DNA from: a bacterium
GTDB lineage: Bacteria > DRYD01
Length of the DNA: 64,000 nt
NCBI GenBank assembly: GCA_030549815.1
Contig: JAUQQQ010000004.1
Coordinates: 1-64,000, forward strand
Direction: 5' to 3'
The position numbers and the translations under genes are program-made. Below the pieces are notes generated by a model. It saw only the letters and a program-made list of their open reading frames with translations, searched no databases and was not told where the DNA came from. Shown here piece by piece: positions 39,134 to 61,280 of this stretch; within the stretch, counting starts at the first letter, position 1; each line of letters opens with the position of its first letter.

Positions 39134-41371
39134 TTATACCATCACTGACAATCCCATTCCTCCATTTAGGTATCCTGCAAAAATACCGAGATTACCTCCC
39201 AATGGCATACCAAAAGTCCCCATATCCCCCATAAATTTTCCGAGTGCTGCTCCCATAACTCCACCAACCAAAGCTCCACCCAAAGCTCCTGCGATTGCTC
39301 CAAATGGTCCTCCCATTAGCATTCCCATACCCATTCCTAATAAAGCTCCACCGAAAGCTCCACGAGCAGCACCTGCACTTGCAGGTGAAATGTTAGTCAA
39401 ATTCTCTCCTACTGCCTGAGATACAAGTTGCTTTACTTCAGGTCTCAAATCTATTTTCTGGGCGATTTGAATATATATCTGCTTAAGTAAAATTTTTGCT
39501 TGAGGATTAGGATTATTCATAACATGTTGAGCAAATTGAGTTAAAGCTTGCTCAGCTTGCTGTTTTATATTAGTTGGTCTGAAAATTCCACCTGTTGCTG
39601 CACCCAATGGTCCTCCTAAACCTACACCCATTAAAGAAGGCATCATTGGATTAAGCGAAAACATTCCTCTATTCATACCCATAATACTGCCGCCCATCAA
39701 TGTCATAGCACCCATCATCATCATAGACATACCTAACATAGGATTCATCATTGACAACATCATTCCACCCATTAACATCGAAGCACCTAAATTCATCATC
39801 ATATTTGGCATTTGCATAGGTGGATTAACAATAGGAAATCCAACATTTGGCATCCCAATTCCTGGGAAACCTATCCCTGGCATTCCCATTCCTGGGAAAC
39901 CTACTCCAGGCATCCCCATTCCTGGAAATCCCATGTCTGGAAAACCTAATCTTGGCATACCTGGAAATCCTATTCCTGGAAAGCCCATACCCGGTAGACC
40001 AATTCCTGGGAAACCAATTCCTGGCATCCCCATTCCTGGTAACATAGGATTCTCACCAAGCATCCTTAATCTCATCATTATCAATTGCATTAACTGCTGA
40101 TTTGTAATCAAGTTATTAATTGTTTGCTGTTTTCTATCCCTAATTTCTGCTAAATTATTTCTTATGTTTTGCAAATGTTGCATAACTTTTTGCTTAAGTT
40201 TTTCTAGGAAGTTTATTTTCTTATCCATTAGGTTTTGCATTTTATTCATGTGGTTAGCTTTGTTTTGCATCAATTTAGCTTTTTGTTGAAGGACTTTAGC
40301 AGCTTTTTTAAGCATTTTAGCAACCATTCTTAATGCTTTTGCAGCCATTCTCAAAGCTGCAGCTATAGCAGGTCCTACCAGGGGGATAGCCTGTGCTGCA
40401 TTGGCAGCAGCTTCCAAACCTTGAGCAGCTTGTTCCATAACAATAGACATCTTATCAACGGCTTTACTAACAGTGTCCAATATTTTAGAAAATCCCTTAA
40501 ACATTACCTCCTTACCCTTAAAGAACATTTTTCTCATTTTGGCAAAAGATTGAGATTGATTAAATTTCATGAGATCCATTTGTAATCTCATCATTTTTTG
40601 CATTTCGAAATTTTCTGCCTGATTAAGAATATTAAGCCTTCCAAGCAAATTTTGATGATTTTGATAAGAAGAATTCAACATGTTAGCCAATTGATTAACA
40701 TCATGTATTTGCATTACAAAACCCATTTGAGTAGATCCCAAAAGTTGGTTAGCCATCATTCCAAAGAATGAACCCATTAAAGACCCTACACTAAAATTAT
40801 TCATAAAAGGATTTTGAGAAATCATATTGTCAGGAATAGAGATATTAAAAGCGGTTAGTAAAAATCTGAAATCCCCTTGTAAATTAGGGAATTGAGCCAG
40901 TAATTTCGCGCCTTTATTATACAAAGCATCCTTAGCTTCATTTGAACCAGCAAAAACTCCTAACTGTTGATTTATTCCACTTTCGGTCTTAGATTTCAAA
41001 TTTAAATGCTTAGATTTCAATTTTTTAAGATTATTTAAACCTTTGGTATACATTTTTATTTGTTTTTTAATCTGGTTAATTAACCCCCAAGGTTTTTTCT
41101 TTTTACTTAATAAGCTACTAAGTTTTTGTTTCAATGATGATATTTTATTCGTTAAAGAAGAGATACCACCATCAAATTTTGCAATAGTTTGCGAAAAATT
41201 TTGTTGTAAGACATTAGGAGTAGATTCAATTTTAAAATTTTCACCAAAACCTAAATCTTCCAAAGGTTTGTCACTTTTTATTCCTTGCTCAACCTGTTTT
41301 ATATCGTTTTGTGTAACATCACCACTTATTCTACCAACACCAAAAAACGAAAAACTATCGTTTATCATCAT
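39134..41371 (-). CDS. Coiled-coil / elastin-like pentapeptide / Gly-zipper protein, unknown function
   Basis: ORF track starts at 41404; Met at 41371 is preceded by GGAGGTGAATATT. 745 aa, no signal peptide, 13 XPGXG units, Gly-rich C-terminus. Confidence 0.8.
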   Translation of the reverse strand: MMINDSFSFFGVGRISGDVTQNDIKQVEQGIKSDKPLEDLGFGENFKIESTPNVLQQNFSQTIAKFDGGISSLTNKISSLKQKLSSLLSKKKKPWGLINQIKKQIKMYTKGLNNLKKLKSKHLNLKSKTESGINQQLGVFAGSNEAKDALYNKGAKLLAQFPNLQGDFRFLLTAFNISIPDNMISQNPFMNNFSVGSLMGSFFGMMANQLLGSTQMGFVMQIHDVNQLANMLNSSYQNHQNLLGRLNILNQAENFEMQKMMRLQMDLMKFNQSQSFAKMRKMFFKGKEVMFKGFSKILDTVSKAVDKMSIVMEQAAQGLEAAANAAQAIPLVGPAIAAALRMAAKALRMVAKMLKKAAKVLQQKAKLMQNKANHMNKMQNLMDKKINFLEKLKQKVMQHLQNIRNNLAEIRDRKQQTINNLITNQQLMQLIMMRLRMLGENPMLPGMGMPGIGFPGIGLPGMGFPGIGFPGMPRLGFPDMGFPGMGMPGVGFPGMGMPGIGFPGIGMPNVGFPIVNPPMQMPNMMMNLGASMLMGGMMLSMMNPMLGMSMMMMGAMTLMGGSIMGMNRGMFSLNPMMPSLMGVGLGGPLGAATGGIFRPTNIKQQAEQALTQFAQHVMNNPNPQAKILLKQIYIQIAQKIDLRPEVKQLVSQAVGENLTNISPASAGAARGAFGGALLGMGMGMLMGGPFGAIAGALGGALVGGVMGAALGKFMGDMGTFGMPLGGNLGIFAGYLNGGMGLSVMV
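39839..40042 (-). repeat. Tandem 15-bp coding repeat (elastin-like XPGXG pentapeptides, 13 units)
   Basis: LPGMG MPGIG FPGIG LPGMG FPGIG FPGM(PRL)G FPDMG FPGMG MPGVG FPGMG MPGIG FPGIG MPNVG; 204 nt = 68 codons. Confidence 0.9.
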
Positions 41372-41550
41372 ATAATATTCACCTCCTGCATATTTTCTTA
41401 CCAATATTTTTTATGTATTTTTTTTTAAAAAATTCAATTTTCTTTATCATTTTTTTACAAAATTTTAACAAAGTACATTATAAATATAAAGGGAACAAAA
41501 AGATTAGGAAAAATTTTATAAATGAAAATTATTATTAGGAGGTAATAAAA

Positions 41551-60059: not shown

Positions 60060-61280
60060 ATGATAGACAAGATAACTTTAAACTTAAATAATACAACAGT
60101 CCAAAATCCAACAACACAAGTAAAAAGAGAAAATCAAACAGCAGAAATAGTAGATAAGGTTGAAAATGGTGGGGAGCCAGAAAAAAAGAAATGGTTAGTT
60201 TTACTATACTCTGCAGGAGACAATAACCTATACAGCTATCTCTTTGATGACTTAGATGAATTAGAAACTGTAGGTTCGGATAAAAACACTCACATAGTTG
60301 CATTAGCAGACCAAGGAAAATATGGAACAAAATGGAAAGGCGCAAAAACTTTCTATTTGCAACCTGATCAAGAAAAAGGGAAAATAAACTCTCCCGTATT
60401 AGAAGATTTAGGGCAAGTTAATTTAGCAGACCCTGAATTTATGGGACAAAAAATTGGTGAAATCATCAAAAAATATCCCGCTGATTACGTAACTGTTATT
60501 ATCTCAGATCATGGAGGAGGATGGGAAGGTGCAGTAGAAGATGACAGCCCTAATTACAAATTCATGAGTTTAAGTGAAATAAAACAAGCTCTACAAAAAG
60601 CAGTAGAAGTTGGTGGTAAAAAGATAGACGTTTTAGGATGGGATGCATGCTTAATGGCTATGGCTGAAGTTGGTTATGAATTAAAAGATGTAGCAAAATA
60701 CATGGTTGCAAGCGAACAATTAGAAGGGGCAGATGGTTGGCCTTATGGAAGCATATTTGGTAGTACACTTAAAGACGTGTTAAAAACTGCTCAACAAATG
60801 ATGCTTGTCAATATAGATGTAGAACCTAAAGATTTAGCAACAATGATGGTTAAAGCAGCACAGAATTTCACTCACTCTATCAAAACATTGTCAGCAGTAG
60901 ATTTAGAAAAAGCTCAAAATTTAGCAACTAAAACAGATGAATTAGCTCAAGCTATACTAAACGATACTTCCTCGTTTAACAAAATAAAAAACGCAATAAG
61001 AAATACTGAAAAGTTCTACGGCAGTTTCAGAGATCTTGGACATTTTGCAAAGTTAGTCCAAAATTTAGATGTAAGTGATGAAATAAAACAAAAAGCTGCA
61101 GAATTAGAAAAAGCATTAAACGAATACGTAGTTAAAGAATTCCATACTTCAGCTCATCCCAATGCTACAGGTGTATCAGTAGAAATGCCAACATGGGGCA
61201 GCCCTTCATATTCTTACCAAGATACTTCTTTCGCAAAAGATACCAAATGGGACGAAATGCTTAGCAAAGTTAGTGGATAA
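60060..61280 (+). CDS. Clostripain-related (C11 family) cysteine peptidase
   Basis: KWLVLLYSAGDNNLYSYLFDDLDELE, VTVIISDHGGGWEG, DVLGWDACLMAMAEVGYEL; strong AAAGGAGG RBS. Confidence 0.92.
   Translation: MIDKITLNLNNTTVQNPTTQVKRENQTAEIVDKVENGGEPEKKKWLVLLYSAGDNNLYSYLFDDLDELETVGSDKNTHIVALADQGKYGTKWKGAKTFYLQPDQEKGKINSPVLEDLGQVNLADPEFMGQKIGEIIKKYPADYVTVIISDHGGGWEGAVEDDSPNYKFMSLSEIKQALQKAVEVGGKKIDVLGWDACLMAMAEVGYELKDVAKYMVASEQLEGADGWPYGSIFGSTLKDVLKTAQQMMLVNIDVEPKDLATMMVKAAQNFTHSIKTLSAVDLEKAQNLATKTDELAQAILNDTSSFNKIKNAIRNTEKFYGSFRDLGHFAKLVQNLDVSDEIKQKAAELEKALNEYVVKEFHTSAHPNATGVSVEMPTWGSPSYSYQDTSFAKDTKWDEMLSKVSG

What the first reader, a model, noticed from the sequence alone, without database searches (positions are those of the whole stretch)
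39839..40042. Natural elastin-like (XPGXG)13 domain in a bacterial protein
Translating the minus strand gives 13 consecutive pentapeptides of the form (L/M/F)PG(M/I/V)G, with one 3-aa insertion (PRL) and two degenerate units (FPDMG, MPNVG). This is the VPGXG signature of elastin, with Met/Phe/Leu as the first residue. Tropoelastin and engineered elastin-like polypeptides show inverse-temperature coacervation. A highly hydrophobic version in a presumed thermophile could be a temperature-responsive assembly or condensate element.
Basis: partly seen in the sequence, partly recalled or inferred. Interest (0 to 1): 0.72.

Follow-up and report, generated by a model that had tools for sequence, protein, structure and literature searches.

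The report
Hydrophobic elastin-like repeat in hot-spring bacterium
An uncultured hot-spring bacterium (Candidatus Calescibacterium lineage) has a large protein of unknown family that carries 13 copies of an elastin-type five-residue repeat; the repeat is real, conserved in related species and very rare elsewhere in microbes, but it is probably too water-repelling to act as a temperature switch at about 80 C and looks more like a flexible tether between a helical bundle and a membrane-prone end.

Summary
Window 39839-40042 (minus strand) encodes 13 in-register pentads, 10 exact xPGxG, inside a 745-residue protein (39134-41371). Whole-protein shuffles never gave 3 exact pentads in a row (observed: 5). 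Orthologues in five other Calescibacteriota genomes keep the period of five but vary in exact copies (3 to 21); the conserved core is hydrophobic-Pro-x-hydrophobic-Gly, and Gly3 is often replaced in the genus. Elsewhere it is very rare: a hydrophobic (hPGhG)4 DNA pattern is in 0 of 380 other bacterial genomes and 2 of 2.9 million viral contigs; other xPGxG arrays found are hydrophilic or Ala/Gly/Pro-rich. The protein is basic, Met-rich, without recognised signal peptide, and predicted as a helical hairpin with a hydrophobic tip, then the array (disordered), then Met-rich and Gly-zipper segments. An acidic helical gene follows 7 bases downstream in the window and adjoins in all four orthologous loci that reach that far. 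Best reading: a lineage-specific membrane-active or exported protein with an acidic partner, the array being a length-tolerant hydrophobic tether. A thermal switch is unlikely, since published (FPGVG)4 separates near 18 C (in 3 M NaCl) and the habitat is about 80 C. Coacervation is untested.

The parts
39839..40042 (-). Array of 13 pentads (L/M/F)PG(M/I/V)G, 10 exact, one PRL insertion, two degenerate
   Evidence: translation and unit table; shuffles
39134..41371 (-). Host protein gene, 745 aa, pI 10.2, 10.7% Met, no Cys, no Pfam family; the ORF from TTG extends to 41404
   Evidence: ORF, start and composition, Pfam below cut-off, orthologues
41380..41387 (-). Shine-Dalgarno-like AGGAGGTG, 8 bases before the ATG
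   Evidence: sequence read
40061..40699 (-). Predicted helical hairpin, residues 236-448 of the open frame, with conserved hydrophobic tip AIPLVGPAIAAALRMAAKAL (about 333-358)
   Evidence: AlphaFold2; hydropathy; identity 61-79%
39569..39814 (-). Met-rich hydrophobic segment, residues 531-612, directly after the array
39389..39568 (-). Conserved polar helical domain, residues 613-672
   Evidence: 70-78% identity; helices
39227..39388 (-). Gly-zipper hydrophobic segment near the C-terminus, residues 673-726
   Evidence: hydropathy peaks; helices
38539..39126 (-). Acidic all-helical partner gene, 195 aa, pI 4.05, 7 bases downstream of the host gene's stop; same neighbour in G001, G003, G004, G005

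Best explanation
The array is a disordered, hydrophobic, length-tolerant tether inside a Calescibacteriota-specific membrane-active or exported protein. The protein is made without a recognised signal peptide, is basic and probably aggregation-prone, and is probably held by the acidic helical protein encoded next to it. A long helical hairpin with a hydrophobic tip is joined by the (hP-x-hG)n array to a Met-rich and Gly-zipper region able to enter a membrane or self-associate. Selection keeps the period and the hydrophobic Pro/Gly-rich composition, while copy number drifts by gain and loss of 15- and 30-bp units. Shown: array, period conservation, copy-number change, gene pair, charge contrast, restriction to the lineage in the genomes searched. 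Predicted only: helical hairpin and disorder. Inferred: tether role, partner as chaperone, membrane or export destination.
For: Orthologues in G001-G005 keep the array between the same two conserved blocks, with hydrophobic residues at positions 1 and 4 of nearly all xPxxG units. Exact unit counts are 10 (window), 3 (G003), 3 (G001), 6 (G002), 12 (G004), 21 (G005). G004's units are identical in DNA except TTA/TTG and one ATG, and G005's show a 30-bp two-unit period, so arrays expand by duplication; the window's own units differ at synonymous sites, so that array is older and retained. AlphaFold2 gives two ~100-residue helices meeting at a hydrophobic tip and pLDDT about 27-35 across the array. 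Hydropathy peaks at the tip, after the array and near the C-terminus recur in orthologues. pI 10.2 against 4.05 for the adjacent partner, which adjoins in all five readable loci.
Against: The full-length model is poor (mean pLDDT 50, pTM 0.30, six sequences), so the relative placement of parts is not established. Hydropathy peaks are moderate (1.3-1.8) and do not prove membrane insertion. No family, fold or experiment supports a chaperone role for the partner. A simple tether does not obviously explain why both guest positions stay hydrophobic.
Confidence: 0.42

Rival explanations
1. Elastin-type self-association element: the array collapses and brings many copies together, building a condensate, fibre or cell-surface material; at growth temperature it is permanently collapsed rather than switched.
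For: Sequence chemistry matches elastin-like polypeptides; guests stay hydrophobic in all orthologues; 21 exact units in G005; short (FPGVG)4 phase-separates near 18 C in 3 M NaCl (PMC12903191).
Against: Only 3 to 21 exact units in a protein dominated by predicted helices; PG turn not conserved in G001; no signal peptide recognised; no phase data.
Confidence: 0.22
2. Substrate of the flagellar-type export apparatus: a translocator-like or pore-forming protein exported with the acidic neighbour as its chaperone, by an apparatus that has lost flagellin. (Compatible with the best explanation, but a stronger claim.)
For: FlhA in all six lineage genomes searched, FlhB beside it in G000, G004, G006, rod proteins, FliI and FliJ in G000, but no flagellin, FliD or P-ring FlgI match, with positive controls for each. 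No signal peptide recognised; basic hydrophobic protein plus small acidic gene; weak structural likeness to alpha-pore-forming toxins (MakA E=0.01, AhlB, SmhB).
Against: No linkage to export genes seen; no SseC Pfam match in the protein; the genome-wide SseC search had no positive control and is uninformative; fold matches do not reach E 0.001 and generic coiled coils score alike; partner matches no chaperone fold; all genomes are incomplete.
Confidence: 0.17
3. Neutral repeat expansion: a slippage-prone low-complexity linker without a specific job.
For: Copy number varies widely and the G004 and G005 arrays are homogenised at DNA level; in G001-G003 Gly3 is often replaced.
Against: Period, Pro2, Gly5 and hydrophobic guests persist across genera at 55-56% overall identity; the window's array is diverged at synonymous sites yet keeps the motif.
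Confidence: 0.14
4. Met-rich bristle: the array and the following Met-rich region bind hydrophobic clients or soft metals such as copper, as Met-rich segments of other proteins do (analogy from general knowledge).
For: 10.7% Met overall, no Cys; Met at position 1 of every exact unit and at position 4 of many in G005.
Against: Met is interchangeable with I, L, V and F between orthologues, which does not fit metal ligands.
Confidence: 0.05

Closest known systems
Tropoelastin hydrophobic domains and engineered elastin-like polypeptides (VPGXG)n
   Same: Period of five, Pro-Gly at positions 2-3, Gly at 5, hydrophobic position 1, guest at 4
   Different: Position 1 is M, F, L or I rather than V; Gly3 replaced in many orthologue units; few units; embedded in a helical bacterial protein; no homology claimed
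Other prokaryotic and phage xPGxG arrays (e.g. PGTGT, PGQGQ, PGRGP)
   Same: Same DNA and peptide period (62 viral contigs; G034)
   Different: Those are hydrophilic or Ala/Gly/Pro-rich with at most 0.2 large hydrophobic residues per array residue; this one is 0.4 (two of five)
Pentapeptide repeat proteins (right-handed quadrilateral beta-helix; reviewed in PMC8145042)
   Same: Period of five only
   Different: Different motif; no Pfam hit; no beta-helix predicted
Alpha-pore-forming toxins (MakA, AhlB, SmhB) and type III translocators
   Same: Long helical hairpin with a hydrophobic tip (predicted here)
   Different: Fold matches not significant, no family match, extra array and C-terminal segments

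Membership tests
Elastin-like repeat (VPGXG)n | Tandem xPGxG in register | tested here: met
   10 exact units, five in a row; 12 and 10 in a row in G004 and G005
Elastin-like repeat (VPGXG)n | Valine at position 1 | tested here: not met
   L, M, F in the window; Val only twice, in G001
Elastin-like repeat (VPGXG)n | Conserved Pro-Gly turn | tested here: inconclusive
   kept in G004 and G005, replaced in many units of G001-G003
Elastin-like repeat (VPGXG)n | Inverse-temperature phase transition | not testable with these tools
   needs the purified segment
Pentapeptide repeat protein | Pfam pentapeptide motif and beta-helix | tested here: not met
   no Pfam match; array predicted as coil
Type III translocator (SseC family) | SseC Pfam match in the protein | tested here: not met
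   not among matches up to E=1
Type III translocator (SseC family) | Encoded in a genome with a type III export apparatus | tested here: met
   FlhA, FlhB, FliI, FliJ, rod genes
Alpha-pore-forming toxin | Significant fold match | tested here: inconclusive
   best E=0.01, none at 0.001, model of low confidence

The most novel reading that the evidence does not exclude
Calescibacteriota use a flagellin-less flagellar-type export machine to deliver a lineage-specific, chaperone-paired, membrane-inserting helical protein whose two halves are joined by a natural elastin-like spring that is permanently collapsed at about 80 C.
Probability: 0.13. Interest if true: 0.78.

Novelty: new variant of a known kind. 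Interest (0 to 1): 0.46.

Why it matters
Hydrophobic elastin-type arrays are known mainly from vertebrate elastin and engineered polymers (general knowledge). A natural bacterial one, with a conserved period and varying copy number across species, offers an independent origin for comparison and a thermophile-derived sequence set for materials work. The gene pair and the flagellin-less export apparatus of its hosts also give a testable question about what an uncultured phylum secretes.

Tried and rejected
Pfam, PDB sequence and PDB fold searches gave no family for either protein; PDB sequence hits of the host protein (viral spike coiled coils, E about 0.001) were judged coiled-coil composition effects. 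One search used a wrong accession (TIGR01107, an unrelated family) and is void. The SseC genome search had no positive control and says nothing about absence. Literature searches found no report of a natural bacterial hydrophobic elastin-like array in the held open-access papers; this is not proof of absence. An assembly artefact was rejected because orthologues occur in five other, independent genomes.

Full report
Observation. The minus strand of 39839-40042 encodes 13 pentads, 10 of them exact xPGxG, inside an open frame of 756 aa; unit and codon tables are. A start at ATG 41371, preceded by AGGAGGTG, gives 745 aa. Shuffling the whole protein 20,000 times never produced three in-register units; shuffling the array segment alone produced at most three, against five observed.

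Organism. Orthologues fetched from named records carry titles such as Candidatus Calescibacterium sp. SKYB25; its contig length (13,697) is that of G002's contig, and G002 is in the window's genus, so the window belongs to the Calescamantes/Calescibacteriota lineage. PMC4791363 describes this lineage from circumneutral springs at about 80 C. GC of the window is about 29%.

Conservation. Searching 58 genomes found long relatives in five genomes, three of the same genus and two of another genus of the family, and none in the other-family genome G006 (73% complete) or in more distant ones beyond short low-complexity matches. In the alignment the array sits between the same two conserved blocks. 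Exact xPGxG counts are 10 (window), 3 (G003), 3 (G001), 6 (G002), 12 (G004), 21 (G005); G001 and G002 are cut by contig ends at their N- and C-terminus, not in the array. Positions 1 and 4 are hydrophobic in nearly all xPxxG units; position 3 is mostly Gly in the window, G004 and G005 but often Pro, Ser or Ala in G001-G003. So the conserved thing is hP-x-hG with period five, and the strict elastin PG turn is a subset of it.

Repeat evolution. In G004 the 12 units are identical in DNA apart from TTA/TTG and one ATG; in G005 a 30-bp MPGLG-MPGMG pair dominates. These look recently duplicated. In the window Pro and Gly codons vary between units, so that array is older and its motif has been kept. 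This favours selection on composition with copy number free to change, though no formal selection test was run.

Rarity. The DNA pattern for five successive PGxG units occurs in 4 of 385 genomes: three of this lineage plus G034, whose array is Ala/Ser/Asn-rich. Requiring a hydrophobic codon (NTN) at both guest positions for four units gives 0 of 380 genomes, a set centred elsewhere but overlapping the first set heavily, and 2 of 2.9 million viral contigs, both short runs in short frames. The 62 viral contigs with six plain units have hydrophilic or Ala/Gly/Pro-rich arrays.

The host protein. It is basic (pI 10.2), 10.7% Met, without Cys, with no Pfam family. AlphaFold2 predicts helices 236-337 and 344-448 joined at a hydrophobic turn (AIPLVGPAIAAAL), with the array unstructured, but overall confidence is low. 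Hydropathy peaks recur at the hairpin tip, in the Met-rich region after the array and in a Gly-zipper region near the C-terminus. PDB fold matches, led by alpha-pore-forming toxins and chemoreceptor coiled coils, are not significant. No signal peptide was recognised by eye; no predictor was available.

The partner. A 195-aa gene starts 7 bases after the stop of the host gene. It is acidic (pI 4.05) and has counterparts in the same place in G001, G003, G004 and G005, although it diverges much faster: 23% identity to the other genus against 55-56% for the host protein. Its model is all-helical and moderately confident, without a PDB relative. A chaperone or binding role is an inference from charge contrast and gene pairing.

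Export context. All six lineage genomes searched have FlhA and rod proteins with the Flg_bbr_C domain; FlhB lies beside FlhA in G000, G004 and G006; FliI, FliJ, a FliK-like protein and a lytic transglycosylase were read in G000. Flagellin, FliD and FlgI gave no match while positive controls rang. [quoted passage not shown] the present result questions that inference, with the caution that all genomes are incomplete. Whether this apparatus exports the array protein is unproven.

Thermal switching. PMC12903191 reports that (FPGVG)4 at 0.2 mM in 3 M NaCl phase-separates near 18 C, and PMC4072924 states that hydrophobic guests and larger polymers lower the transition. Both guest positions here are hydrophobic and the array is three times longer, so at about 80 C an elastin-like segment would be collapsed all the time. 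Salt and context differ, so this is an argument and not a measurement. It makes a temperature switch in the natural range unlikely and leaves permanent hydrophobic collapse or a tether as the open readings.

Conclusion. The array is genuine, conserved in period and rare. The best-supported account is a hydrophobic tether within a lineage-specific membrane-active or exported protein with an acidic partner (0.42). Self-association of the elastin type (0.22), export by the flagellin-less apparatus (0.17; compatible with the first account but listed apart), neutral expansion (0.14) and a Met-rich binding role (0.05) remain open.

Noticed in passing
G000-G004, G006 (loci L027, L029, L041-L045): A flagellar-type export apparatus and rod (FlhA, FlhB, FliI, FliJ, FlgB, FliE, FlgC, FlgF/G-like, FliK-like) with no match for flagellin, FliD or FlgI in six incomplete genomes; it questions the motility inferred in PMC4791363.
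   Followed up: partly
L070:1492-2217 (window genome), L021:143-883, L022:3426-4160, L020:6672-7406, G004 C27: A second lineage family of about 240 aa with a strong C-terminal Gly-zipper; some members carry a few PGxG pentads, the window genome's copy does not.
   Followed up: partly
L042:12432-13546: Two adjacent small Gly-zipper proteins without recognised signal peptide or Pfam family, about 2 kb from the flgB-fliE-flgC genes of the window genome.
   Followed up: no
L029:11997-13364: In G006 a phospholipase D/cardiolipin synthase-like gene lies directly upstream of flhB-flhA on the same strand.
   Followed up: no
L018:10133-14039 and L019:1675-5772: Near the array gene, the other genus has a conserved run of a coiled-coil protein, an EF-hand protein with a long Ser-rich tail and a 440-aa acidic protein.
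   Followed up: no
window 60060-61280 (+): Clostripain-family (C11) peptidase with an Asn/Thr-rich N-terminus and no recognised signal peptide.
   Followed up: no
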